From NCBI GenBank assembly GCA_003615045.1, contig ML014286.1, positions 1-38,318 of the forward strand: a DNA stretch of 38,318 bases. The letters are read 5' to 3'. The stretch comes from Caulochytrium protostelioides. Its lineage: Eukaryota > Chytridiomycota > Caulochytriomycetes > Caulochytriales > Caulochytriaceae. Position numbers and translations under genes: made by a program. Positions within the stretch are counted from its first letter, which is position 1. Every line of letters begins with the position of its first letter. Shown piece after piece: positions 982 to 38,318 of the stretch. The notes beneath the pieces are model-generated. The model was not told the DNA's origin. It ran no database searches and saw only the letters and a list, made by a program, of their open reading frames with translations.

Positions 982-1694
982 GGTTTCGCGGCTCGCGACC
1001 CGCCTCACGGCCACGGCCCTCCCAGCGGGCGCGGTCTTGTCGAAACGAAGGGGAGATGCGACAAGATGCGGGTGATTCACCGAGACCCATCTGGTTGAAG
1101 CAGACCCAGCGAGAGCCGGGTGTTCGGGCTCTGGTGTCATGGGCGGTGGCCAAGGCGGCGGTGGGTCGGGTCCGTCGCATCGTCCGTCGCATCGTCAGTC
1201 CCATGGTCCGAAACGCCGCCGCCGAGTGGCCGTATGGTTCATGGCTGCACGTCGTGGATATCGGTTTGGGCCCTTGGCATGACGGTTCAGGGGCCGGATG
1301 GTTTCACATTGGCCTAGCGGGACGGGAAGATCGAGATGGAGTCGTCTCGGCCGGGATACCGATGGGTGATACCTGGAACGCGGCCCAACGGACCACAGGC
1401 GTCGAATGCGCAGGCCACCCGACGCCTCACTCGATTGATCGACATGAATCAACGCACCGACGTGGACCGACGGTGCGCACGCATTAAACTTCCTGGCTCG
1501 ACAGCTCACCGACGGCGAGGCTCCTCCGTTTTCAGTCGCCGGCTGACCTACCACACCGATCGACTAACGCGATCGTCGTCTCCCACTCCGGCCCCGCGAT
1601 CGCCGCATCGGTGCTCGTGGACGCGTGACCTGCACTTGTCGTATACCTGATTTTCCCGTGGTCGCATCGGACGGCTCGACCGGAGGTGAGCAGC

Positions 1695-4600
1695 ATGCCG
1701 ACCCCCGCCCCGAGCGGGCTGACGCCCCTCACGACGGACTTCGGCGCCTCCCCGCCGGCCGGCGCGCGGCTGCCGAGCCCGTCGATCCTCGTCAAGCCGA
1801 GCAAGCTCGGCGCCGCCGGCGCCGATGGGCCCGCGCCGCACCTCTCCGAGTCGCGCGTCCACATCGACATCCCCCAGCCGGCTTCGAATTCCCGAACCGC
1901 GGCGTCGACGGCGCCCGCGACGGCGCCCGCGACGGCCTCACTAGCGCCTACGTCGGCGCCGCTTCCGGTCTGGCACCGCGGCAGCTGCGGCGCCATGACG
2001 CCGCCGTCCGCGACATCACCCCCGACCATGACGATCACGCTCAAGCCGGCGGCGGCGGCGCGGTCGACGGCGCCTGTGGCGACGCTCGTCGCGGACGACA
2101 GCTTGAGCGTGCCGCGGCGCGGCCGCGCCCCATCGAGCGTGTCGAACGGCACAACGGCGTGGCCGCGGGAGGCTCGTCTGTGCGACGGCCGAGCCGCCGT
2201 CTCGGACACGGAGGGCGCGTCGTCGGAGTTCGACCGCGACAACGCCTCGTCCTCGGCCCTGTCGGCGACGTCGTCCTCGTCCAGCAGCCGCGACGACGAG
2301 GACGACGAGGACGCGTTCGCCGATGAGCGAACCGAGGCGGACGAGGACCCGTTCGATGTCGTTCCGCCGGGCTTCCCCACGACGTCCGTGCCACAATGCA
2401 CGGCGGTCGCGGTCGCGGCGACGATCCGCAAGCTGAGCATGACGCCCGGCGGCATCCCGAGCGGGACAAGTCTCGCGGGTCCCGCGGCGCGCATGATCGG
2501 GCGTGACCGCCGCAACCCCGTCGGGACGCTCGCGGCGCCCGCGCTGCATGCCTCGTTTGCCGAGCCAGGCCCCCCGCGCCGGGGCAGCAGCGCCCACCAC
2601 GGCACTGGCGCCGGCGCCGGTGCCACCGACGCTTCGCCGCGCTCGCCGCCTTCGCCCGGCGATGCGACCATCTGCAGCGCCGGCGCGATGGCCGCGCCGG
2701 TCCGCTATGTAATCGCCGGCGGCGGCCGGCAGCGCGCCAAGTCCAATCTGATGCACCGCTTGCTCCATCCGCGAGAGAGCCTCGCCGGGCATGGACCCAT
2801 GGTCATTGTGCCACGGCCCGCGCAGGAGACGGCGCCGCCGCCGCCGCGGGTGTCCGTCACGTCGTCGGCGGCCACGACGGCCGCGGCGGCCGGGCCTGCA
2901 GAACGTGCGACAATCGAGGGCGAGTCTGCCGACGCAGCGTCGGCCGCGCCCCTCCCCTTGCCCCAGGAGCTGGCCGGCCTGCTGGCACACGATCCGTCGC
3001 GCGGGATGAAGCGCGTGGACAACGGCAACACGATCACGCTCATCCATTATCCGGGCTCGCGGGTCAGCGACCACGCGGTCGCCGGCAAAGAGGGACCGAG
3101 CCACCCCCACAGCAGCGGCAATGGGAGTGGGAGCGGTGGCGGCAGCGGCGTCAAGAAGCGCGAGACGTTGTGGCATCGTCTGCTGCATCGCGCCGACGAC
3201 GAGGAGGAGGACGGCAGCGGCTCGGTGAGTGACTACGAGCCGGCCTCGACGGGATCTAGCAGCCCCCTGCACCGCTCGATTAGCATTTCTTTCGGCTACA
3301 AGCAGAGTTTCTCGAGCGTCAAGAGCGCCCCCAAGCTGGGGCCGCAGCCGCTCGCGGCCGCGCCGTCCGCGACGAGCACGAGCAGCACGGGCCAACCGGA
3401 CGCCGCCGCGGGCGGCTCCACACCGCTGCACGCGCCGTCGTCGCCCACGGACGAGCGGCCCGACGGCATTGCCGAGCACAGCGAGACGCCGGCGCGCGCG
3501 CCGACCCGGGCGGGCCGCCCGACGCTGTCGCGCGGGGCGCCGTCCGACGGCGACGGCGAGACGGCGTCGCCGCGCAAGGGCATCTCGCGCAGTGGGTCGG
3601 AGATCGGCCTTGCCGAGAAGTACGGCCGGCTGAGCGAAACGCTGGGCCGTGGCGCGCACGCCGTCGTCCGGCTCGCGCACAAGAGTGCGTGCCTGAGCGA
3701 CGCCGAGGGCTCGGCGGGCATGGGGATGGCGCCGACGTCGGTGTCGGCGTCGGGCAGTCAGGGCTTCCCGGCCGAGAGCGGCGACGCCGTGGCCAGCGCG
3801 ACACCGGGCAGCCGGTCCGGCACGCCGGGCTCGAACACGTACCCCGCGCCGGCGGCGCACGGCGGCACGCCGGGCCCTGCTGGCGAGCTGCTCTTCGCCG
3901 TCAAAGAGTTCCGCAAGCGCCGCAAGCAGGAGTCGTCCAAGGAGTACGTCAAGAAGGTCATTGCCGAGTTCTGCGTGAGCTCAAGTCTGCGTCACCTGAA
4001 CGTCGTCGAGACGCTCGACTTGATCCAGGACGGCCGCAAGCGGTGGTGCCAGGTCATGGAGTACATGCCCGGCGGCGACGTCTACACGCGGCTAAGTGCC
4101 GATCCGCCGCTCGAGCTGTACGAGGTCACCTGTTGGTTCAAGCAGCTGATGGCCGGCTTGACGTATATCCACGGCATGGGCGTCGCGCATCGCGACCTGA
4201 AGGCTGAGAACCTCCTGCTGTCGCGCCACCATCGCATTCTCAAAATCACCGATTTCGGCGTCTCGGAAGTCATCCAGAACCCCTTCGAGCGCACATCTCA
4301 CAAGGTTCACGGCCGATGCGGCTCGCAACCGTACATGGCGCCCGAGATCTGGCAGTCGGTGCACCGCAGCGACGTGTATGACGCGACCAAGGTCGACATC
4401 TGGGCCGCCGCCGTCGTCTTTTACACGCTGCGCTTCCGCAGCGTGCCGTGGCGCGCTGCGCTGCCCGACGACGAGTGGTACCAAAAGTACCTCCACTTCC
4501 GCCAGGGCGGTCCCCACCAAGCCATCATGAGCCTCGAGGGAACGCTGCGCCACATGCTGCTGTCGATGGTCGAGGTCGACCCGGCCAAGCGGCCGACAGC

Positions 4601-4874
4601 CGCCGAGATCTTGGCGCTGCCCTGCCTGGCCGAGCACTCCTGCGGAGATATCCTGCTGCAGGTCGCGTGCAGGATCCGGGCACCCGGCGACGCCTCCAGG
4701 CCGGGGTCGCCCACAGCGACGCGACCGTCGTCGCCGACCGCAGTGGCGTCGACCGATGTGCCGAAAGCCGACCTACCGCACGGTACGATTGCTGCCGCGC
4801 GTCCGGCGTGCCCTGACTGGCACCACATTGACGAGCGCACGATTCAATGGACCCACCAGCACTCGATCGTCTGA
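1695..4874 (+). CDS. HAL4/SAT4/NPR1-type serine/threonine protein kinase
   Basis: A protein of 1059 residues. The first 640 are Ser/Pro/Ala-rich and probably disordered; the kinase domain spans about 645-980. All catalytic elements are present: Gly-rich loop GRGAHAV (G651, G653), VKEF lysine K737, helix-C Glu E758, HRD Asp D834, DFG Asp D853 and APE Glu E884. The stretches AEFCVSSSLRHLNVVETLDL and QVMEYMPGGDVYTRL are typical of the fungal HAL4/SAT4/HAL5 group, which controls plasma-membrane transporters and ion homeostasis (family knowledge; the substrate here is unknown). About 65 low-complexity residues (roughly 665-728) separate the Gly loop from K737. The open frame also allows a GTG nine bases earlier; I chose the first ATG, at 1695. 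No intron is seen. It lies 343 bp upstream of DCC1 in the same orientation, but as a separate eukaryotic gene. Confidence 0.9.
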   Translation: MPTPAPSGLTPLTTDFGASPPAGARLPSPSILVKPSKLGAAGADGPAPHLSESRVHIDIPQPASNSRTAASTAPATAPATASLAPTSAPLPVWHRGSCGAMTPPSATSPPTMTITLKPAAAARSTAPVATLVADDSLSVPRRGRAPSSVSNGTTAWPREARLCDGRAAVSDTEGASSEFDRDNASSSALSATSSSSSSRDDEDDEDAFADERTEADEDPFDVVPPGFPTTSVPQCTAVAVAATIRKLSMTPGGIPSGTSLAGPAARMIGRDRRNPVGTLAAPALHASFAEPGPPRRGSSAHHGTGAGAGATDASPRSPPSPGDATICSAGAMAAPVRYVIAGGGRQRAKSNLMHRLLHPRESLAGHGPMVIVPRPAQETAPPPPRVSVTSSAATTAAAAGPAERATIEGESADAASAAPLPLPQELAGLLAHDPSRGMKRVDNGNTITLIHYPGSRVSDHAVAGKEGPSHPHSSGNGSGSGGGSGVKKRETLWHRLLHRADDEEEDGSGSVSDYEPASTGSSSPLHRSISISFGYKQSFSSVKSAPKLGPQPLAAAPSATSTSSTGQPDAAAGGSTPLHAPSSPTDERPDGIAEHSETPARAPTRAGRPTLSRGAPSDGDGETASPRKGISRSGSEIGLAEKYGRLSETLGRGAHAVVRLAHKSACLSDAEGSAGMGMAPTSVSASGSQGFPAESGDAVASATPGSRSGTPGSNTYPAPAAHGGTPGPAGELLFAVKEFRKRRKQESSKEYVKKVIAEFCVSSSLRHLNVVETLDLIQDGRKRWCQVMEYMPGGDVYTRLSADPPLELYEVTCWFKQLMAGLTYIHGMGVAHRDLKAENLLLSRHHRILKITDFGVSEVIQNPFERTSHKVHGRCGSQPYMAPEIWQSVHRSDVYDATKVDIWAAAVVFYTLRFRSVPWRAALPDDEWYQKYLHFRQGGPHQAIMSLEGTLRHMLLSMVEVDPAKRPTAAEILALPCLAEHSCGDILLQVACRIRAPGDASRPGSPTATRPSSPTAVASTDVPKADLPHGTIAAARPACPDWHHIDERTIQWTHQHSIV

Positions 4875-6803: not shown

Positions 6804-9800
6804 TCAGGGACCCACGCCGAAGGCGCCCGGGAAGCTCGCGAGGGTGCGAGCGATCTCCTGCTGCCGCCGCATCTGCACCGCTAGCGGCAGCCGCGGGCCG
6901 TCGGACCCGGCGAGCGCGATGCCGCCGTCACCCACCGAGGCCTGTCGCGGCCGCGGCGCCCGCGCCGCTGAGGAACGGCCCGGCGACCCGGACCCCAACC
7001 GCGCAGGCGGTGATGCGACTGACTTGGCGAAGCGCGCGGGCGTCACGGGCGTCGAGAAGGTCACCGCGGGCATGCCGCGGCGGCCGGCGGGGATGGCATC
7101 GAGGCTCGGCGAGGCGAGGCGGCCCGGCGAGGCGCCCGAGCCCGGACCGCGGGGGCCGCGCGCGGCCGAGGCGTCGGGCGCCGGGATGGGCGCAGGCGCC
7201 GCCAGGGCCGGGTCCGCGCGCGGCATGGGCGTCGCGCTCTTGCCGAGGAAGGACATCGACCGGCGGAAGGGCATCGTTGTGGCCAATCGGGACCGCGCGG
7301 CGGTCGGCGCCATGGACGGCGACGCCGGCGCGGCGGTGGCCGCGGTCACCGGCGCGTGCAGCGGCGTCTCAGCGGCCGGCGCCAGGTCCGTCAGGTCCAT
7401 CGCGTCGTCGGTAGGCGACGCGACGAGTGGCGCTTGCGTGCGCAGCGCCATGTCTTCGGGCAGGGACGGCAGTGTGCGCTCGGCGGAGGCGGTCGGTGCG
7501 AGGACCGTCGACAACGGCGGCTGCGGCACCATGGCCGGAGTGATGGGTGCCTGCGTCGGGGCGGCGGCGCTCTGCCCACGCTGCAGCGAGGCGGTCAGGA
7601 TGCCGACGCTGGCCGAAAGATGACGTGTGAGCGAGCGCTGGCGGCCCATGCGACGTCCCGTCGGGCCGAGCGTCGCCGTCGTCGTCGGTGCCGTCGCGCC
7701 GCCGTTCGCCAGCGAGGGGGTGGGGGAGCCCGACGCCACCGAGGCCGCGAGCAGGGCGGACCGCGTCGGCGGCTGGAGATGGCTGAGCAGATCGCTGCCC
7801 GAGCCGAAGACTGAGCCGCCGGAAGACACGGTGTCGCCGTTGCCGCCAGCGACGGCGAGCGGCGGCGTGCCTGACGCCGCCAAGCTGTGGCCGCTGTTGG
7901 AGCGCGACGGCGAGAGGAAGTGGTGCGTCATGGCGCGGCCGTGCTTGCCGCGCGGCGCCGACGCCGCCGACGCGGCGTCGACCGGCGGGTCGCTCGTGGG
8001 CGGCGTGTTGGTGCTGCGCGCGAAGCGGAAGACGGAGGCGACGAGCGTCGCGGCAACCGAGGGCCGCCGGGTCATACTGCGGGCGAGCGGCGGCGGCGCG
8101 TTGGTGTTGGGGTTCGCGGGCGCATGGCCCGCGACGACGGTGGCGTGGCGGGTCGTGCTGGCGCGGGCGGGCGGCGGAAGCCCCGTGTTTGCGGAGGCCG
8201 TCGAGGCCGCCAGGGGCGCGCCTGAGGCGACGAGCTGCACTTTGGGCCCGCTGGGCGAGGCGACCGTCTTGCTGCTGACGTGCGCGTTCTCGGTCGTGGA
8301 GCGCGAGAGCGACGGATGGAGACGGGCGGAGCGTGGGCCCGGAGATCGGGAGGCCACGCCGTGAGTGCCGTCGCGATCGTCGCCGGCGGGCAGTGGCGCG
8401 GTCGGCGCGACCGTGGCCGTCGCGCTGGCCGCTGAGGCACCCGCGGCACCAGTGGTGTGGGTGGCCGTGGAGGCCGACAGGGGCGCCGTGGTCGTGGACG
8501 CGCGCTCATGGATAGCGGTGCCAATGGACACGCGGCGGGCGCCCATGGCCATGGCGAACTGCTCGGTGAGCGGCGCCTGCGAGTGAGTGCTTTCCAGCAG
8601 CAGGGTGATGCCCGCGATCCAGCGGCGGTGGTCACCCCAGTTGGTCGCGACGAGTTCGAGCTTGCGGCCCGGCGTCATAAAGACGAGCGCATGCTCGCGC
8701 GAGGGCGGGTAGTTGCGCGTCGAGCTGGCGTGGACCGCTTCGTTCCACTGGAGGCTCTCGATAAACGCGTAGCGCGTGGCTTGGTTGCGCTTGCCCTGCG
8801 ACGGCGGCTTCGCGGCCCAGTGCAGGGTGCGCGCGTAGGGGTTGATCCAGAAGTAGCGCAGCCGCACGTGGCGGCCATTGCGACTATACTTTTGGAACCA
8901 AGATCCGATCATGGCATGCGTCAAGGACTCGACGGGATGCTCGGCCGCGGCCATCGAGCCCGACTGGTTCATGCTGGCCGAGTGGGTCGGGCTCGCACGG
9001 CCGGAGCCCATCAAATCGTCGTCGCTCAGTGGCGCATCCCGCAGCACCGACTGTGCGCGCGAGAAAGACGCGCCATCGCTGAGCGACGCTTCGGGCTCCC
9101 GCGGCAGCGTAGGCCGGCGGGCCATCCCGTTCGGCGCGTCTGACCGCGGCGGCACGACGCGGTCCTCATAGTCGACGGGCGTCCGGCCCGACAGCGGCCA
9201 CGGCAACGGGCCCGTAGACTTGACGGGTGACCGCGAACGCGGGGTGCTGTGGGCGCTCCGCGTCGGCACATCCACCAGCACGGCGGCGTCCGCCACGTCG
9301 GGCTCAGAGGATTTCGCCAGCAGGACCGGGCCGCTCGGCGATGTCGGCAGCGTGGCAGCGCTGTCGGCATGCGGCGTCTCGACCGCGGCTGCGCTTGTGA
9401 GAAGGGCATCCAAGGCGGCGGCGTCGCCGCCCATGACAGGCGCCATCACCTCCGCGGTCGAGCCGCTCGATGGCACGTGACGGCCGTCGGCGTGAGCGTT
9501 GGCGTCCGCCGCCGCCGAGGCAAACAGGTCGTCGAGACGGCGCGGGACGCCCATGAGTTCCGGGTACGTACAGGTCGAGGACGCGAGACTGTCGGCGCGG
9601 GAGAAGCGGCGGCTGCTGGGTTCGAGTAGGGCCAAGCCGTCGGCCTCGAGGAGGCGCGCCCCGGGCGCCACGGCGTCCACGTGGGCGTCGGCGTGCGAAG
9701 GGACCGGCGCTGCGCCGCCGTCGAGGACAGCCGCGGCGGACGGGCGCGACGGCCGCGCGCCGATGCCGTCGTCGCGATCGTCGACGTCGCCATCGTCGTC

Positions 9801-11420
9801 GTCGTCGTTCAGCTCATCGAGGTCGAGGTCGAGCGAGCTCGTATCGCTGACCGGGAGGGGCAGCATAAAGGCGAAGCGCGACGGCGACGGCTGAATGCTC
9901 ATGTGGTGCGTGGACGGTGCCGGCGCCGGACTCGTGCCCATGTCGGCGAGCCCGTGCATCTCCCACGGATCGGCCTGGGCCCCCGCGTCGCGGACCACGG
10001 CCGCGATGGTCTGCGTCTCCATGTGGAAGACCGGCTGCCGCTGGGCGGCCTGTTGGGCAGCCGCGAGGGCGGCGAGGAGCCGCTCGCACTCTTCGGTCTG
10101 GTGCTGCAGGCGCGACTGCAGCAGACGGCGCTCCTGCTCCATGCAGTGCGCGCTGCTCTGCAGCGTCGCGATGCGCATCTGCAGCTCGTGGATCGACTCG
10201 GTCGCGAGCCCTGTCGCACTAGACCGCGAGCTGTTCTTCGAGAGCGACGCGGTGAGGCCGTGGGCCGCCTGGGCTTCCTCGAGGCGCTGCAGCTCCTCCA
10301 GCGTCTTGGCCAGCGTGGCGTTCGTTTGCTGGAGATCGGCACGGACCGTCTCGAGTTCGGCCAGCAGGTGCTGGCGCTCCTGCAGCCACGCGTCTTCCTG
10401 GCGCGCATACGTGTGTGCCTCTTCGTTAGCGCGATGCAGCAGCTTGTCGTGTTCCCTTTGCAGCTCGAGCTGCTCGCGCCTCGCGTCCTCGAGCTGCTTC
10501 TCGAGCAGCTTGGCGCTGGCTTCCAAGGACTGCATGCGCGTCATGATCTTTTGGCGGTCGGTGCGCAGCACGCGCACCGTTTCCTCGCTGGCCTCCAGGT
10601 GGCGGTTGGCGTCGGCCTGCGCCGCGTCCTGCCGCCGCTGCCACTGCGCCTGCTCTTTGGTCAAGGACCGGATCTTGCGCGTCATGTCCTTGCGGTCGCG
10701 GTCCCAGGCATCGCGCTCGGCCGTCAGCTCCGCCACGTGCAGTTTGAGCTTCTGCGCTTCCTGGATCAAGCACTGGTCCAAGCTGGACGCGAGGCCTTCA
10801 TCCAGCTGACTGATGCGCTGCTGCGGCTGATAGGGCAGCGACGGCGACGGCGGCTGCGGGGTGGCTGGGTGGCGCGCGCTAGCGACGGCCGTCAACGGCG
10901 TCGACGGCGCGGCAGCGCCATGGGTACTCGATGCGCCAAGCGACGCGGCCAGGCCCGCGGTCGCCGGACGATTCCGTGGCGCCGGGATGCGACTGATGCG
11001 GAGCGACCGGTCCAGCCGGGTCGGGCTCGCCCCGGAGAGCGCTGCGGGCGCGTCGCCGGCCGCGGCTTCGTTGGAGGCGAGAAAGGCCTCGAAGGAGTGC
11101 GGGTCGTGCGCGGGCATCGACGGCCGGGCGGCGTCGGCCTCGGCGGCGTGGGCGGCCTGCGCAGCGGCGGCGGCGGCGGCGTCGGCCTCCGCTTGCTCGA
11201 GCTCGTCGACGCGGGCTTTTAGCGCTTCGACCTGCGAAAGCAGCATCTGGCCGAGCGACGCGGCCGTGTTGCAGTCGCTCTCTTTGGCGGCGAGCTGCGC
11301 CTGCAGCGCGGCGATCAGCGCCTCCTGCTGCTGCAGCTGCTGCAGCGCGTCCGCCGCGGCGGGCGGGGCGACGGCCGTCGGGCCATCGCGGGCCACGCTG
11401 TCGGAGACGGCCGCCGACAT
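6804..11420 (-). CDS. NUM1/ApsA/Mcp5-like cortical anchor: coiled coils plus PH domain
   Basis: A protein of 1538 residues. Residues about 24-80 form an N-terminal coiled coil containing AASLG (53-57). Long coiled coils follow at about 205-390 and 408-460, with an acidic run near 530. The PH domain lies at about 835-945, starting MIGSWFQKYSRNGRHVRLRY and continuing FWINPYARTLHW. This is the meiotic-cell-cortex PH type found in Num1, ApsA and Mcp5. Those proteins bind PI(4,5)P2 at the plasma membrane, anchor dynein for nuclear positioning and, in yeast, tether mitochondria. The remaining 590 residues are Ala/Pro/Ser/Thr-rich with no recognisable domain. Num1 homologues normally have the PH domain near the C-terminus, so the tail is odd. 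The frame extends upstream to a GTG; I use the ATG at 11420. It is divergent from the PIH1 gene. Confidence 0.82.
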   Translation of the reverse strand: MSAAVSDSVARDGPTAVAPPAAADALQQLQQQEALIAALQAQLAAKESDCNTAASLGQMLLSQVEALKARVDELEQAEADAAAAAAAQAAHAAEADAARPSMPAHDPHSFEAFLASNEAAAGDAPAALSGASPTRLDRSLRISRIPAPRNRPATAGLAASLGASSTHGAAAPSTPLTAVASARHPATPQPPSPSLPYQPQQRISQLDEGLASSLDQCLIQEAQKLKLHVAELTAERDAWDRDRKDMTRKIRSLTKEQAQWQRRQDAAQADANRHLEASEETVRVLRTDRQKIMTRMQSLEASAKLLEKQLEDARREQLELQREHDKLLHRANEEAHTYARQEDAWLQERQHLLAELETVRADLQQTNATLAKTLEELQRLEEAQAAHGLTASLSKNSSRSSATGLATESIHELQMRIATLQSSAHCMEQERRLLQSRLQHQTEECERLLAALAAAQQAAQRQPVFHMETQTIAAVVRDAGAQADPWEMHGLADMGTSPAPAPSTHHMSIQPSPSRFAFMLPLPVSDTSSLDLDLDELNDDDDDGDVDDRDDGIGARPSRPSAAAVLDGGAAPVPSHADAHVDAVAPGARLLEADGLALLEPSSRRFSRADSLASSTCTYPELMGVPRRLDDLFASAAADANAHADGRHVPSSGSTAEVMAPVMGGDAAALDALLTSAAAVETPHADSAATLPTSPSGPVLLAKSSEPDVADAAVLVDVPTRSAHSTPRSRSPVKSTGPLPWPLSGRTPVDYEDRVVPPRSDAPNGMARRPTLPREPEASLSDGASFSRAQSVLRDAPLSDDDLMGSGRASPTHSASMNQSGSMAAAEHPVESLTHAMIGSWFQKYSRNGRHVRLRYFWINPYARTLHWAAKPPSQGKRNQATRYAFIESLQWNEAVHASSTRNYPPSREHALVFMTPGRKLELVATNWGDHRRWIAGITLLLESTHSQAPLTEQFAMAMGARRVSIGTAIHERASTTTAPLSASTATHTTGAAGASAASATATVAPTAPLPAGDDRDGTHGVASRSPGPRSARLHPSLSRSTTENAHVSSKTVASPSGPKVQLVASGAPLAASTASANTGLPPPARASTTRHATVVAGHAPANPNTNAPPPLARSMTRRPSVAATLVASVFRFARSTNTPPTSDPPVDAASAASAPRGKHGRAMTHHFLSPSRSNSGHSLAASGTPPLAVAGGNGDTVSSGGSVFGSGSDLLSHLQPPTRSALLAASVASGSPTPSLANGGATAPTTTATLGPTGRRMGRQRSLTRHLSASVGILTASLQRGQSAAAPTQAPITPAMVPQPPLSTVLAPTASAERTLPSLPEDMALRTQAPLVASPTDDAMDLTDLAPAAETPLHAPVTAATAAPASPSMAPTAARSRLATTMPFRRSMSFLGKSATPMPRADPALAAPAPIPAPDASAARGPRGPGSGASPGRLASPSLDAIPAGRRGMPAVTFSTPVTPARFAKSVASPPARLGSGSPGRSSAARAPRPRQASVGDGGIALAGSDGPRLPLAVQMRRQQEIARTLASFPGAFGVGP

Positions 11421-11728
11421 GGCCAATCTCCGGGGAAAGGCCGTCCACGCAGCGCGGCGGAGGCGCACGAGACGCGTCGCAGCGAGAGTCGCAATGCGTG
11501 CGAGACGCAGTAAGTCTAGCCGACCAGGATACCGGCACGCGGCGCTCGGGTGCTCACCCTCGGCGCAGGCAACAGCCGAGGTCGGTGCTCAGAGGCTCGC
11601 GACGTGGCGAGAGAACCCAAGGTCGGACCGCCAATGGGCGGTGATAGCGGTGGTGGTGGCGACGGCGGCGGCAGCCACGTGTCCGTCGCCCCAGACGGCG
11701 TCTACGAGCCGACGTGATCTGAAGGGCC

Positions 11729-24592: not shown

Positions 24593-24651
<59 letters not shown>
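24593..24651. repeat. GGC trinucleotide array, about 19.7 perfect units
   Basis: 59 bp of uninterrupted GGC, the longest simple repeat in the window, about 540 bp upstream of the NIPA-type start. On transcription from the minus strand it would be GCC. It could form G-rich secondary structure and is likely length-variable between isolates (inference from repeat purity). Confidence 0.95.
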
Positions 24652-29912: not shown

Positions 29913-31904
29913 TCAGCCGTCAGAGAGCAGCGACTCCGGGAGGTCCCAGTCTAGTGTGGGCGCGCGTTGCAGACTGAGGATTGGCGGGCCGTCCGCCAGC
30001 TCGGGTCCCGACGTGATCACCAGCTCACCGGACCGACGCGACTCGATCACCACTGGCAGCAGCGACGTCTCGCCGCTCAAACCTAACGCCAGAAGTCCGC
30101 CCGTGGCCGGTTTAGCCATTCCATACGACGGCTTACCGGCCGGAGGCCCAGCCATGGCCGAAGGGACGAGCCCCGACACGGCCCCCGTCGCCACCGCGTT
30201 GCTGCCGCTGCCAGGGTTCGCGCCGACCGCCACCACGCCGCCCGCCGGCTCGCCACCTTCCGTGCGCTGGCGCCGCATCGCTAACGCGTCGCGTCGCACC
30301 TGGTCGGGCCGTCCGACGTTCACGTGATTGTACGGGCAGTGCCGACACTCGCTGCCGCAGCAGTAACCGCGCGCTCGGGCTTCGAGCGCCGTGTTGACCA
30401 GGAAGCCGGTCTTCGGGTCGAGGTAATGCCGCGCTCCGGCGGCCACCGCGCGCGTATGCAGCGCCGTGCACAGCGCCGTGTACCCGAGGTCCTCGACATC
30501 GCCGATGGATCCGCTTTCGGCTTCGGCGTCGCGGGCGACGGTAGCGGCGCGAAGCCGCGGGAGGCGGCTGAGGAAGTCGTTGCTGTGCGTGGGGCGCATG
30601 GCCGTCGGGTGCGGGCGGCTACCGTCGATGCCCGCATACGACATGTGCTTCGTGTTCTTGGCGCGGCGGCCGGCCTTGCGCGGCGCCGCCCGCGCGCCTG
30701 CGTTTTTGGTGGCCGCGGCGCCGAGGGATGCCGTGGTCCCAAGGGCGTCGGCCGAGACGACTTCTGTAGATGGCTCGTGCAGCAGCGAGACCGAAGGATA
30801 CGAGACCTTTGAGGGGAGCCGCGGGCTCGACTGAACCGAACTCCCACTCGAGCTGGCGGGGCTCACCGAGTCGCGACGGGTCTGGCCGCAGGGCAACGGC
30901 TGGGACACGGTACTGGACCGGCGACTGGACTCCTTGCTGAAGAGCTTGAGCGCCACGCCGCGAACCACCGTGGCCGATGATTTGCCGGCGCGCTTGATGC
31001 GCGACGTCAGGCCTACCGTGATGTTCATGAACCCAGTGACGGGCACGGACTCGCTCTGTGCACTACGTGGTGAGACGGAGAATCCCATTGAGCGTGCCGG
31101 TTCCAGCGATGCGGGCGAGGCGCAGTTCGATGTCCACGCCGAGGACGATGGCACGCGACCATGCCCGCCGTCCGTCGCCGTGTCAGTGGCCTCGGACGCG
31201 TCTGCCGCCGATGGCGCCCCCGTCTGCGCATGGCCATGGTTCTCCGTGTGGTCCGAACGGAAGGAGCACTGGTATGGCAAGGTGCCAGGCGAGCGAGTCG
31301 GGCTCGGCAAATCAGCTTCGGAGAAGTGCTGCAGGAGCCGTGCCGGCGATAGCGGCGGGTTCACGATCGCTGACGCCACTGCGGTCACCGTCGCTGCGGG
31401 TATCGCGGTCGCCGTCGTTGCCGTCGTTGCCGTCGTCGTCGTGATGGCAGCAGTAGCGGCGTCGGCAGACAAGCTCTGGGGTGTGGCGGGACGCCGAGAC
31501 GGCGCAGAGGCCGCTGCGACCACTGTGGTGGCGGCAGAGACGGTGGCGATGGCGGTGGCAGTAGCGGTGGCCGCGACATTGGTGGCCGCGAGAGTGGCGC
31601 CGATTGGGATCGGCTGACTGATCGTCGACGATTTTGATGATTCAGACGGACCATGTGGTGAGGTGGGCGTTGGCAGGCCGGCGATAATGGACGTCGACTC
31701 GTTGACTTTCGAGTCTAGTGAGGTCAGGGTGATCTGGGACCGGGATTCGAGCGGAGTGACCGTCGAGTAGGGCGATCCGTTGAGCGTGGGCTGGGACTGA
31801 GCGCGGTTCATGGTGGTGGTGGCGGCGGGCGGTGGAGGGTGGCCGTTGCGGAGCGCGACGGGCACGGCCGCCGGCCAGCCCCGCACCGACCGGTCTGACG
31901 GCAT
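29913..31904 (-). CDS. DUF5522 (C1orf53-like) domain protein with a long disordered N-terminus
   Basis: 663 residues from an ATG at 31904. The only recognisable domain is at about 479-527: CTALHTRAVAAGARHYLDP, KTGFLVNTALEARARGYC, then CGSECRHCPYN. The cysteines C515, C516, C520 and C523 form the invariant CC-x3-C-x2-CPY signature of DUF5522, a small family of unknown function also seen as human C1orf53; the cysteine pattern suggests metal binding (inference). Residues 1-470 are Ser/Thr/Ala/Pro-rich, including long Thr/Ala runs around 110-180 and a basic patch near 385-400 (RAAPRKAGRRAKNTKHM). The 135 residues after the domain are Gly/Ala/Pro-rich. DUF5522 proteins are usually short, so the extensions are unusual; the domain could be a later exon of a smaller gene, but I see no intron signals that demand it. 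Confidence 0.7.
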   Translation of the reverse strand: MPSDRSVRGWPAAVPVALRNGHPPPPAATTTMNRAQSQPTLNGSPYSTVTPLESRSQITLTSLDSKVNESTSIIAGLPTPTSPHGPSESSKSSTISQPIPIGATLAATNVAATATATAIATVSAATTVVAAASAPSRRPATPQSLSADAATAAITTTTATTATTATAIPAATVTAVASAIVNPPLSPARLLQHFSEADLPSPTRSPGTLPYQCSFRSDHTENHGHAQTGAPSAADASEATDTATDGGHGRVPSSSAWTSNCASPASLEPARSMGFSVSPRSAQSESVPVTGFMNITVGLTSRIKRAGKSSATVVRGVALKLFSKESSRRSSTVSQPLPCGQTRRDSVSPASSSGSSVQSSPRLPSKVSYPSVSLLHEPSTEVVSADALGTTASLGAAATKNAGARAAPRKAGRRAKNTKHMSYAGIDGSRPHPTAMRPTHSNDFLSRLPRLRAATVARDAEAESGSIGDVEDLGYTALCTALHTRAVAAGARHYLDPKTGFLVNTALEARARGYCCGSECRHCPYNHVNVGRPDQVRRDALAMRRQRTEGGEPAGGVVAVGANPGSGSNAVATGAVSGLVPSAMAGPPAGKPSYGMAKPATGGLLALGLSGETSLLPVVIESRRSGELVITSGPELADGPPILSLQRAPTLDWDLPESLLSDG

Positions 31905-35319: not shown

Positions 35320-35582
35320 TCTACAACCAGTATCACAGATCATTTGATGGATCATTTGGCGATCTTACCATCGTCCTTTGGTTTTCTTTTTTCGCCATCT
35401 TCCATCACGCAACCATCTTTGTGGTGTTGTTGTCGGACCCTCTCTGCATCGCAATCTGGCCTGCGACCCCTCCAATCTTCTTGCTGGAAGCATCGGACGA
35501 CTGGCATCCTCTCCGTTTGATCCACCCTTTGCTTGCCAAGTGTGGTCCCGTAGCAGTCGAGTATGCCATCGCGCAAGCCAAG

Positions 35583-37868
35583 ATGGACCACCCGACGTTA
35601 CTACGCACGACCGGCACCGCTATGCCCAAACTCAGCCACCACGCCGGCCAGCCGGGCCAGCCGGCTGGGAGCGATCCCGGGACCGGCGGCATCGGCTTGG
35701 GCATCCGCCACGAGAAGCTTGCCCTGATCGCCCATCCGACGCCCAGCGCGAGTATGGCTCTCGGCTCGACGCGATTGCCGGTGTGGCAGGTGACCGTGCC
35801 GACGCCGCTTGATGCGCTCGAGGCCTTGCCCACTTCGCCGTGCTCCCTGCAGGTTCCGATGCTCGAGCCGCAGACGCCGGTGCACGATGCGACGTCGGGC
35901 CCTTCGCACAACACCCAGCCGAGCCAGCGCCGATCTCCGACGGGCAATCCTGCGGACGCCAACTTGCAGCCCTGTTCGTCGGCGACTAGCAGCCTGCCGC
36001 TCACCGAGATGCGGCCCTCGACCCCGGGTCTGCGGAGCACTGACTCAGACTTCCCGCAGCTTTCTCCGCGGGTCTCGATTCGCACAAGCACCGAGGCGAG
36101 CCCCGCGGAGCCGTCGACGCCGTCTCCGCTCTCGATCCCGATTCTGAAGCCCAGCAACCTCGACGGCAAGAGCCCGGTCCTTCTTAAAGGCCAGCGGGAC
36201 CCGTCAACAGTCGTCACGGACTGGGAGCAGGCCAAGTTGATCCAGCTCACGTGCATCTCTGGTGAAAAGAAGTCCCTGTATGATGTCGTGAATCGCCGCC
36301 GCGTTGCGGTCGTCTCGCTCCGTCGCTTCAACTGCCCGACCTGCTTTGCCTACGTGATTCTCTTTTCGCATCTGCGGTCGGTCATCAATGCCGGCAACAC
36401 CGATATCATTTTCCTTAGCCCGACATCATACTTGTCGGATGTATTTCTCTTCATGCGCAATTTTGCCTTCTGGCTGCGCCACGCCGAGAACGTCGCGGGA
36501 AACGTGCAGGGCGAGTACCCGGTCCCCGGCGAGTTCTACTTAGACGCGGACCGCACGGCCTCTAAATTCTTGGGGTTCGACCGGACCATCTTCAAGATGC
36601 GATCGATCAGTCTGCTAGCACGCGGCCTCCTCGACAAGAGTTTCCGGTCGTCCAAGGGCGACCGTGCTGGCTCGGATCCGGCGACGCGGCCAGCGCTCTC
36701 GGTCCCGCGCAGCCAAAAGCAGGCCTGGCACCAGCTGACGGCGTTTGTATTGCGCCGGATGTTGCACTCCCTGGAAGGTAGAGGGATCTATTACGATGCC
36801 CCGGGGATCTGCTTGATCGACAACCGCCGCGTCATCTACCACTTTGTCTCGCAAGACCAGTATGAGCCACTGCCTTCCACGCCCAACAACTTCTTGAGTG
36901 ATATCGGATGCCCGGCGCCAAACGTGTTCCCAAAAACATGGCTGCAGGACTGCATTCACGATTTTCTCAAGATCGTCAATACCCCTGACCGCAACCGCAT
37001 TTATACCCAGAACCTGCCGGTGCTCTCTCGGTTGGGTTCTGGACGCGAATCTATTGTTCATCAGTCCAAGTGGATGGGCCGATATGTCGCTGTCAAGCGC
37101 TACCGTCGTCTAGCGGCCGACAACGTCGATGTCATATCCTTTTCGAACGAGGTGACCTGTCTCATGTCGCTGCATCACAAAAACATTATTGGATTCCTCG
37201 GCTTCAACATCCAGGGCCCGGATCTCTACGTCGTGACCGAGTTTATGGAGCGCGGCAGTCTGTTTGATGTGCTGGCGCAGCCGGAGCTGCTGACGCCGTG
37301 CACAAAGGCCCACATGCTGCAGGACGCGGTCCAGGGCGTCGCATTTCTGCATCAATGCAAGCCGCCCATTGTCCACCACGACCTGAAGTCCCTCAATCTG
37401 CTGGTGAGCCAGAACTATACGGTCAAAATCACCGATTTTGGTGTCACCGTCGCCAATATGTCGCACAAGCGCCGCTCGCGGTTCGAAGAAGACGCATGTC
37501 AGACGGGTCTGCCCCCTGATGCGACGACCGCGCTGTTCGTGACGCCGGGGCCGTCCGGGTGCACGATCCAGTGGATGGCGCCCGAGCTCTGTCTCCAGGA
37601 CGCGATTTGCACGACGGCCTCGGATATCTTTGCGATCGGCGTCATCTTTTGGGAAGTTGCGTCGTGCCGTCGGCCTTGGCTGCGCGTCCCGCACCCGCAG
37701 ATCCTCAACGCCATCCTCCGGGGCGAGCGGCTGCCGCTCAACCCCGCATGGCCGACGCCCTTCCGCGACTTCATCAAGATGCTCTGGCACCAGAACCCCA
37801 AGAAGCGGCCGAGCGCCAAAGCGATCCTCAAACGACTTCAGGTTGTCGCAATTCCTTCGAGCCCATAA
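35583..37868 (+). CDS. Peroxiredoxin-like (AhpC/TSA_2) domain fused to a TKL-type protein kinase
   Basis: 761 residues. Residues 1-215 are Pro/Ser/Thr-rich. Residues about 220-430 resemble the PRXL2/AAED1 thioredoxin fold: VAVVSLRRFNCPTCFAYV carries C251-P-T-C254, followed by GEFYLDADRTASKFLGF and, after an insert, GICLIDNRRVIYHF. A kinase domain follows (about 478-755): Gly loop LGSGRESIV (G485, G487), VAVK K505, VHHDLKSLNLLV with catalytic D600, DFG D618, and APE at 666-668. The wording (MSLHHKNIIGFLGF, FMERGSLFDVL, WMAPELCLQD) is that of tyrosine-kinase-like kinases. HRD is HHD, and the activation segment is about 48 residues long with C639 and C660. A redox-controlled kinase is an inference; no substrate can be named. 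The frame is open upstream to a GTG at 35421; the first ATG, at 35583 in AAGATGG, is used. Confidence 0.85.
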   Translation: MDHPTLLRTTGTAMPKLSHHAGQPGQPAGSDPGTGGIGLGIRHEKLALIAHPTPSASMALGSTRLPVWQVTVPTPLDALEALPTSPCSLQVPMLEPQTPVHDATSGPSHNTQPSQRRSPTGNPADANLQPCSSATSSLPLTEMRPSTPGLRSTDSDFPQLSPRVSIRTSTEASPAEPSTPSPLSIPILKPSNLDGKSPVLLKGQRDPSTVVTDWEQAKLIQLTCISGEKKSLYDVVNRRRVAVVSLRRFNCPTCFAYVILFSHLRSVINAGNTDIIFLSPTSYLSDVFLFMRNFAFWLRHAENVAGNVQGEYPVPGEFYLDADRTASKFLGFDRTIFKMRSISLLARGLLDKSFRSSKGDRAGSDPATRPALSVPRSQKQAWHQLTAFVLRRMLHSLEGRGIYYDAPGICLIDNRRVIYHFVSQDQYEPLPSTPNNFLSDIGCPAPNVFPKTWLQDCIHDFLKIVNTPDRNRIYTQNLPVLSRLGSGRESIVHQSKWMGRYVAVKRYRRLAADNVDVISFSNEVTCLMSLHHKNIIGFLGFNIQGPDLYVVTEFMERGSLFDVLAQPELLTPCTKAHMLQDAVQGVAFLHQCKPPIVHHDLKSLNLLVSQNYTVKITDFGVTVANMSHKRRSRFEEDACQTGLPPDATTALFVTPGPSGCTIQWMAPELCLQDAICTTASDIFAIGVIFWEVASCRRPWLRVPHPQILNAILRGERLPLNPAWPTPFRDFIKMLWHQNPKKRPSAKAILKRLQVVAIPSSP

Positions 37869-37874
37869 GGGCCA

Positions 37875-38318
37875 GCGTCTACGGCTATACGCAAGCAGCG
37901 CGTGTTTGCCAACATGAACCGCGTCGCCAAGAAGGCGGTCACGGCGATGGCGCCCGTCGTCGCTGAAGTGGTGATCGCCTATGGCGCCTCCCAGTTTGCC
38001 CCCGGCGGCGAGGGCGAGGTCGCCCTTCCAACAGTATCGCGCGTACCTGGCGTGTGCCCAGCCGTTTCGCACCGTTCTGGTCGACGAGTTCCGGACGACC
38101 CAGGTGCATGCCGAGACGAACGACCTCCTGACCCAGGTGAAACCCCGGGACTCACGAAAGTGCCGATCTCTTGCGCCTTCCGGGCGAGCGTTGCCCAAAT
38201 GCGCCTGCGGCCGTCAACCCGGTCCGCAGGCGTGGGGCGAGCGCTCGCTCGACGGCGCCGAGGCGGGTCAACCCGCTCCGCCGTGCTCGCGCGGGTGCTT
38301 CCTCCACCGAGCCGACGC
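37875..38318 (+). pseudogene. Truncated, frameshifted Fanzor/TnpB-like transposon nuclease fragment
   Basis: One frame reads FANMNRVAKKAVTAMAP, then VVIAYGASQFAPGGEGEVA and LPT up to about 38033. A frame one base further on continues YRAYLACAQPF and RTVLVDEFRTTQVHAET (DEF codons at 38083-38091), on to the window edge. Read together across one extra base near 38034, this is the middle of a Fanzor/TnpB-like protein: the 'YGxxxF...GxGE...PT' block, then the 'VDEFRT' strand before the zinc ribbon. After LLTQVKPRD the expected VRGLLWC block is not recognisable. The fragment begins within about 10 bases of the upstream kinase stop, so its N-terminal half is missing. It is related to the fragment at 1-317. 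Sequencing error as the cause of the shift cannot be excluded. Confidence 0.55.

What the first reader, a model, noticed from the sequence alone, without database searches (positions are those of the whole stretch)
35583..37868. A peroxiredoxin-like CxxC domain fused to a TKL-type kinase
One uninterrupted frame joins a PRXL2/AAED1-like thioredoxin-fold domain (C251-PT-C254, plus the late strand GICLIDNRRVIYHF) to a complete kinase with K505, D600, D618 and APE. I know these as separate families and do not recall a described protein joining them. The layout suggests a kinase whose activity is set by thiol state, a possible one-protein peroxide or redox sensor and effector. The arrangement is seen in sequence; the function is inferred.
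Basis: partly seen in the sequence, partly recalled or inferred. Interest (0 to 1): 0.8.

Follow-up and report, generated by a model that had tools for sequence, protein, structure and literature searches.

The report
PRXL2-like thiol domain fused to kinase
A fungal-type gene encodes one protein that joins a divergent peroxiredoxin-like 2 domain with an intact CxxC thiol pair to a complete protein kinase, so a redox-controlled kinase is plausible but untested.

Summary
One frame (35583-37868, 761 aa), with coding signal through the junction, joins a CxxC domain (about residues 214-440) to a kinase (481-752, PF07714 E 9e-44). The CxxC domain does not hit PF13911. A profile of 23 vertebrate PRXL2 proteins scores it 22.4 bits, against 4.8 for the best of 2000 shuffles; hhalign gives 94.7% over 89 columns; NCBIfam SelL_rel_redox gives E 2.6e-5, below its cut-off. 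Its model, built on PRXL2 rows and so partly circular, finds human PRXL2B first in the PDB. It is PRXL2-like but divergent, and its C-terminal half is uncertain. Two genome searches ring only here; two others ring nowhere. The kinase is nearest CTR1 and reads HHD instead of HRD. A thiol-controlled kinase is the likeliest reading, but nothing here shows that redox state changes activity. The paper listings I searched showed no such fusion; no fungal genome collection could be scanned. New variant of a known kind.

The parts
35583..37868 (+). whole gene, 761 aa, single uninterrupted frame
   Evidence: codon log-odds
35583..36197 (+). residues 1-205, S/T/P-rich region without family match, probably disordered (by eye)
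   Evidence: 0 Pfam families
36222..36902 (+). PRXL2/AAED1-like thioredoxin-fold domain, about residues 214-440; N-terminal part (214-335) well supported, the rest weak
36333..36344 (+). CxxC motif C251-P-T-C254 in RRFxCxxC, aligned with C44/C47 of human PRXL2B
36528..36587 (+). GEFYLDADRTASKFLGFDRT, residues 316-335, counterpart of PRXL2 (H/G)ExYxD....LG
   Evidence: the stretch 286-345 alone scores E 1.1e-4 on the PRXL2B profile, 0.0012 and 0.0056 on the two others
36804..36845 (+). late strand pair ending IYHF (residues 408-421)
   Evidence: pLDDT under 50; tentative
36903..37010 (+). linker, residues 441-476
   Evidence: coding frame
37011..37838 (+). protein kinase domain, residues 477-752, TKL-like
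   Evidence: PF07714 E 9.2e-44, 150 bits, cut-off 23.1; CTR1 E 7e-39
37095..37097 (+). K505 of AVK
37374..37397 (+). catalytic loop HHDLKSLN (598-605), D600, N605
37431..37442 (+). TDFG (617-620), D618
37497..37562 (+). stretch of the activation segment from C639 to C660

Best explanation
A genuine fusion protein of a fungal-type eukaryote: a divergent PRXL2-like thioredoxin-fold domain with an intact CxxC pair sits directly before an intact TKL-like kinase. Most likely the N-terminal domain is the sensor or reductase half. Oxidation of C251 by a peroxide or peroxide-like substrate, with C254 resolving to a C251-C254 disulfide, changes its surface or its thiol exchange with the kinase, and so sets kinase output. 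Shown: one frame, the PRXL2-like relationship, intact CxxC, intact kinase residues. Inferred: redox activity, coupling and the direction of control.
For: Single frame and coding continuity. PRXL2 profile 22.4 bits against 4.8 for the best of 2000 shuffles, hhalign 94.7%, SelL_rel_redox E 2.6e-5 for the domain alone and 5.7e-4 for the whole protein. The three PDB matches with E under 0.001 are human PRXL2B, wild type and C44S/C47S. CxxC aligned with C44/C47. Kinase E 9.2e-44 with K505, E523, D600, N605, D618, APE. Kinases regulated through T-loop cysteines are described for BRSK1/2 (PMC11964447, passages read).
Against: No activity data. PF13911 does not match, and the curated models that do ring stay below their cut-offs. 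By single-sequence search of the PDB the domain's best hit is ribosomal eS27 (E 0.052); PRXL2B is at 0.67. Residues 286-451 score only 3.1 bits alone on the full profile and most of them are modelled under pLDDT 50. On the PRXL2C-only profile the CxxC-masked domain scores like the reversed one. Cysteine content of the kinase is within the range of the genome's other kinases. Only one copy is known, so no conservation supports C251/C254 being functional.
Confidence: 0.5

Rival explanations
1. The PRXL2-like domain is a non-redox module in this protein (dimerisation, substrate or partner binding), and the CxxC is a leftover.
For: The domain is strongly diverged, lacks a PF13911 match, carries a 20-residue insertion and an uncertain C-terminal half.
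Against: The CxxC, the preceding RRF and the GExYxD motif are kept.
Confidence: 0.27
2. The domain is an enzyme (peroxide, prostamide-like or disulfide reductase) working beside the kinase, for instance reducing kinase substrates, with no control of the kinase.
For: Human PRXL2B, deposited as prostamide/prostaglandin F synthase, has its thiol pair at the same place. The two genome searches that detect the domain at all find no other PRXL2/SelL-like place.
Against: The linker is short, about 35 residues; weak evidence either way.
Confidence: 0.13
3. Two genes merged by annotation or assembly: an intron, a second start or a chimeric contig between the domains.
For: No transcript data; the codon signal dips to about -0.2 per codon at 36801-37100.
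Against: No stop in 880 codons; the gene frame still beats the other five frames in each step.
Confidence: 0.06
4. The CxxC domain is not PRXL2-like but another thioredoxin-fold or zinc-ribbon domain.
For: Redoxin scores 18.1 bits and ribosomal eS27 E 0.052 by its CPxC; VIA Z for PrxQ (9.6) ties with PRXL2B (9.9); on the PRXL2C-only profile the match fades when CPTC is masked.
Against: The mixed PRXL2 profile scores highest (22.4 bits) and, like the PRXL2B profile, keeps about 10 bits with CPTC masked; GEFYLD....LG is matched too.
Confidence: 0.04

Closest known systems
PRXL2B, prostamide/prostaglandin F synthase (9us9, 9usa), and PRXL2C/AAED1
   Same: RxFxCxxC, (H/G)ExYxD....LG motif, thioredoxin-fold core; best Foldseek match in the PDB
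   Different: 20-24% identity, 20-residue insertion before GEFYLD, longer C-terminal half, fused to a kinase
SelL-related redox proteins (NCBIfam NF040769)
   Same: matches residues 219-282 with E 2.6e-5
   Different: 23.9 bits against a cut-off of 120
CTR1 / TAK1 type TKL kinases
   Same: CTR1 is the closest solved kinase domain; TAK1 is among the next; WMAPE
   Different: HHD in place of HRD, GSGRES loop, DFG-to-APE stretch about 23 residues longer than in CTR1 (coordinates), PRXL2-like domain in front
BRSK1/2 and other kinases with T-loop cysteines
   Same: cysteines in the activation segment (C639, C660), as in a described redox switch (PMC11964447, passages)
   Different: other kinase group; the cysteines are not shown to be in the same register; no separate thiol domain described in the passages read

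Membership tests
PRXL2 / AhpC-TSA_2 (PF13911) | match to PF13911 above its cut-off | tested here: not met
   no PF13911 match; own-genome search 0
PRXL2-like (broader) | significant match to a PRXL2 profile | tested here: met
   22.4 bits, best of 2000 shuffles 4.8 (profile of 22 PRXL2C and 1 PRXL2B); hhalign 94.7%
PRXL2-like (broader) | RxFxCxxC with both cysteines | tested here: met
   R247-F249-C251-C254 aligned
PRXL2-like (broader) | (H/G)ExYxD....LG motif | tested here: met
   GEFYLDADRTASKFLG
PRXL2-like (broader) | thioredoxin-fold core | tested here: met
   model residues 11-80 and 111-130 at block pLDDT 73-89, Foldseek E 3e-5 to 9usa; circular in part because the alignment was PRXL2; without alignment the model failed
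PRXL2-like (broader) | C-terminal strands of the fold | tested here: inconclusive
   pLDDT under 50; residues 286-451 alone 3.1 bits
SelL-related redox protein (NF040769) | match above the curated cut-off | tested here: not met
   23.9 bits, cut-off 120
Classical peroxiredoxin (AhpC-TSA PF00578, Redoxin PF08534) | match above the curated cut-off | tested here: not met
   13.4 of 26 and 18.1 of 26.6 bits
Protein kinase, catalytic | kinase model, VAIK Lys, alphaC Glu, catalytic Asp, Asn, DFG Asp, APE | tested here: met
   PF07714 150 bits; K505, E523, D600, N605, D618, A666-E668
RD kinase | Arg before the catalytic Asp | tested here: not met
   HHD at 598-600
TKL group | phylogenetic placement among TKLs | tested here: inconclusive
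   nearest solved kinases CTR1, then tyrosine kinases and TAK1; no tree made
FslK fungal kinases | Pro at the fourth place of the GXR(L/M) motif (PMC3937382 section 7) | tested here: not met
   sequence reads GERL
Redox-regulated kinase | activity changes with thiol state | not testable with these tools
   needs biochemistry

The most novel reading that the evidence does not exclude
A one-polypeptide peroxide (or lipid peroxide) sensor and effector: the only PRXL2-like protein that the searches here detect in this genome has been captured as the input domain of a non-RD TKL-like kinase, and thiol exchange between C251/C254 and activation-segment cysteines (C639, C660) switches the kinase.
Probability: 0.25. 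Interest if true: 0.75.

Novelty: new variant of a known kind. Interest (0 to 1): 0.5.

Why it matters
From general knowledge, PRXL2 proteins are poorly understood, and eukaryotic peroxide signalling usually passes from a peroxiredoxin to a separate kinase. A natural fusion would name a signalling partner for the family and give a single protein on which thiol-to-phosphorylation coupling can be tested directly. If the coupling fails, it is one more kinase with an accessory domain.

Tried and rejected
Rejected: zinc ribbon or eS27 likeness (E 0.052, driven by CPxC); SelL and classical peroxiredoxin membership (below cut-offs); kinase cysteine enrichment as evidence (2.9% against 0.8-3.2% in 19 own-genome kinase stretches; L003 and L039 are the same gene, and some stretches are partial).

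Led nowhere: homologue searches with the domain inside the whole protein (0 of 1790 candidates at E 0.01 or less) and alone (0 of 341 at E 10 or less). These also missed every PRXL2 protein, so they are insensitive and say little about how rare the fusion is. Prokaryote contigs (0 of 124 pattern hits confirmed), viral contigs (0 of 17), plasmids and phages (no match to PRXL2C). PRXL2C against the own genome found nothing, not even this domain. AlphaFold2 without alignment gave pLDDT 36.6, so it neither supports nor refutes. Literature: searches (20 of 45 papers listed; 0 papers), 50, 56, 81 and 82 were judged from listings, and none of the listed titles and abstract starts describes a PRXL2-kinase fusion. 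In PMC2757866 (passages) a kinase domain is mentioned only in general as an extra domain in thioredoxin-fold proteins. In PMC2837644 (one passage) AhpC-TSA and Pkinase only appear in the same table. Searches were side searches; of these I opened PMC6784888 (passages) and PMC3937382 (passages; sections 7 and 9). The organism was not established; a chytrid such as Caulochytrium was my guess from genome size and GC, and the passages of PMC6784888 neither confirmed nor excluded it.

Rows dropped: loci whose match is on the minus strand (L006, L011, L014, L015, L016, L020, L029) were translated in the wrong orientation and not used. Of the 9 PF00578 places, I read three (L025, L026, L028: glutathione peroxidase-like, Sco1-like and PDI-like, by eye); the other six were not read. 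One search found 825 proteins but listed 120; 23 of these made the test profile (length 180-260, thinned at 85% identity; 22 PRXL2C, 1 PRXL2B) and 43 made the structure alignment.

Full report
Observation. The frame starts at ATG 35583 and stops at 37866-37868, 761 aa, within 880 open codons. Codon-usage log-odds, trained on six other ORFs of the window, favour this frame over the other five in each 300-base step between 35301 and 37701. The margin over the best minus-strand frame is small in the N-terminal part (0.10 at 35451), and the signal is weaker, about -0.2 per codon, at 36801-37100. Two merged genes are therefore unlikely, though transcript data are missing.

Kinase. Residues 481-752 match PF07714 with E 9.2e-44 and PF00069 with 1.2e-40. 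The nearest solved domains are CTR1 (E 7e-39), then tyrosine kinases and TAK1. K505, E523, D600, N605, D618 and APE 666-668 are present; the motif before the catalytic Asp is HHD, so it is a non-RD kinase, and the glycine loop reads GSGRES. C660 aligns with the Gly of the GTPEWMAPE segment of CTR1, and C639 lies in the extended activation loop. In 19 other kinase stretches of the genome (18 distinct genes) no cysteine stands at these two places, but the columns of C660 and C639 are gaps in 19 and 17 of the 19 rows, so this is only a lead. TKL placement rests on nearest hits; no tree was made. By the GXR criterion in PMC3937382 (sections 7 and 9 read; passages) it is not an FslK kinase.

CxxC domain. 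PF13911 does not match. Redoxin (18.1 bits, E 0.0024) and AhpC-TSA (13.4 bits) fall below their cut-offs. In a single-sequence search of the PDB the best hit is ribosomal eS27 at E 0.052, and PRXL2B comes at 0.67. NCBIfam NF040769, SelL-related redox protein, gives E 2.6e-5 for residues 219-282, also below its cut-off. A profile built only from 23 vertebrate PRXL2 proteins (22 PRXL2C, 1 PRXL2B), without the query, scores 22.4 bits (E 3.9e-9 for one comparison); the best of 2000 composition-preserving shuffles scores 4.8. On that profile the reversed domain scores -0.9, the kinase -2.0, and the domain with CPTC masked 10.1. A PRXL2B-only profile gives 18.4 bits and 10.0 masked. A PRXL2C-only profile gives 12.9 bits, and there the masked domain (2.1) is no better than the reversed one (2.0), so part of that match rests on the CxxC. 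Among 729 ORFs of at least 120 aa from 41 loci and the window (overlapping loci counted more than once), the gene's own frame scores 19.0 and the next distinct ORF 3.3. hhalign aligns 89 columns, residues 226-334, through CxxC and GEFYLD to LGF, 29% identical, probability 94.7%. The stretch 286-345 holding GEFYLD scores E 1.1e-4 alone on the PRXL2B profile, but only 0.0012 and 0.0056 on the other two. Residues 286-451 together score 3.1 bits on the full profile, so the C-terminal half stays uncertain.

Genome context. NF040769 rings at one place in the 20.9 Mb genome, this domain (17.5 bits, E 0.028). The domain itself finds only itself. PRXL2C and PF13911 find nothing, not even this domain, so those two searches are insensitive. 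Ordinary peroxiredoxin-type places exist: PF00578 9 places, PF08534 5. A standalone PRXL2 gene, divergent or split by introns, could have been missed. Neighbours in the window are ordinary eukaryotic genes: Dcc1, CLU, NIPA, a WBS-type and another methyltransferase, prefoldin. 'Fungal-type' is my inference from these and from the Mcp5-type PH domain.

Mechanism. PRXL2B has a thiol pair at the equivalent place (the 9usa title names a C44S/C47S mutant; that the pair is catalytic is recalled knowledge). The simplest functional reading is that the N-terminal domain senses or reduces a peroxide-like substrate and its thiol state sets kinase output. Every step beyond architecture is inference. Rivals are a non-redox accessory domain and an uncoupled enzyme.

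Novelty. Seven open-full-text searches, judged from their listings, some capped, listed no paper whose title or abstract start describes such a fusion. The protein search drew on a database whose source labels include nr, uniref and eukprot but gave nothing for this domain; it is insensitive at this divergence. No fungal genome collection could be scanned, so rarity is unknown. I rate it a new variant of a known kind: two known domain families in a combination I could not find described.

Noticed in passing
window 1686-4874 (+): A second protein kinase in the same window (PF00069 E 1.2e-44), with a long low-complexity N-terminus; by eye like fungal HAL/NPR-type kinases.
   Followed up: partly
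window 29913-31904 (-): A 663-aa frame with only a small DUF5522 domain (PF17653, E 2.4e-18, residues 483-529) after a long low-complexity stretch.
   Followed up: partly
window 37869-38318: Downstream of the gene to the contig end, two overlapping frames look by eye like pieces of one broken gene, perhaps transposase-like; no Pfam match at E 0.01.
   Followed up: partly
window 6804-11468 (-): Mcp5-type cortical PH domain (PF12814) inside a 1554-aa frame.
   Followed up: no
window 24593-24650: A perfect GGC trinucleotide run of 19.3 copies.
   Followed up: no
G000:C14:139627-139851: A glutathione-peroxidase-like stretch (by eye) lies at the end of a 597-codon open frame with a long low-complexity N-terminal part.
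   Followed up: partly
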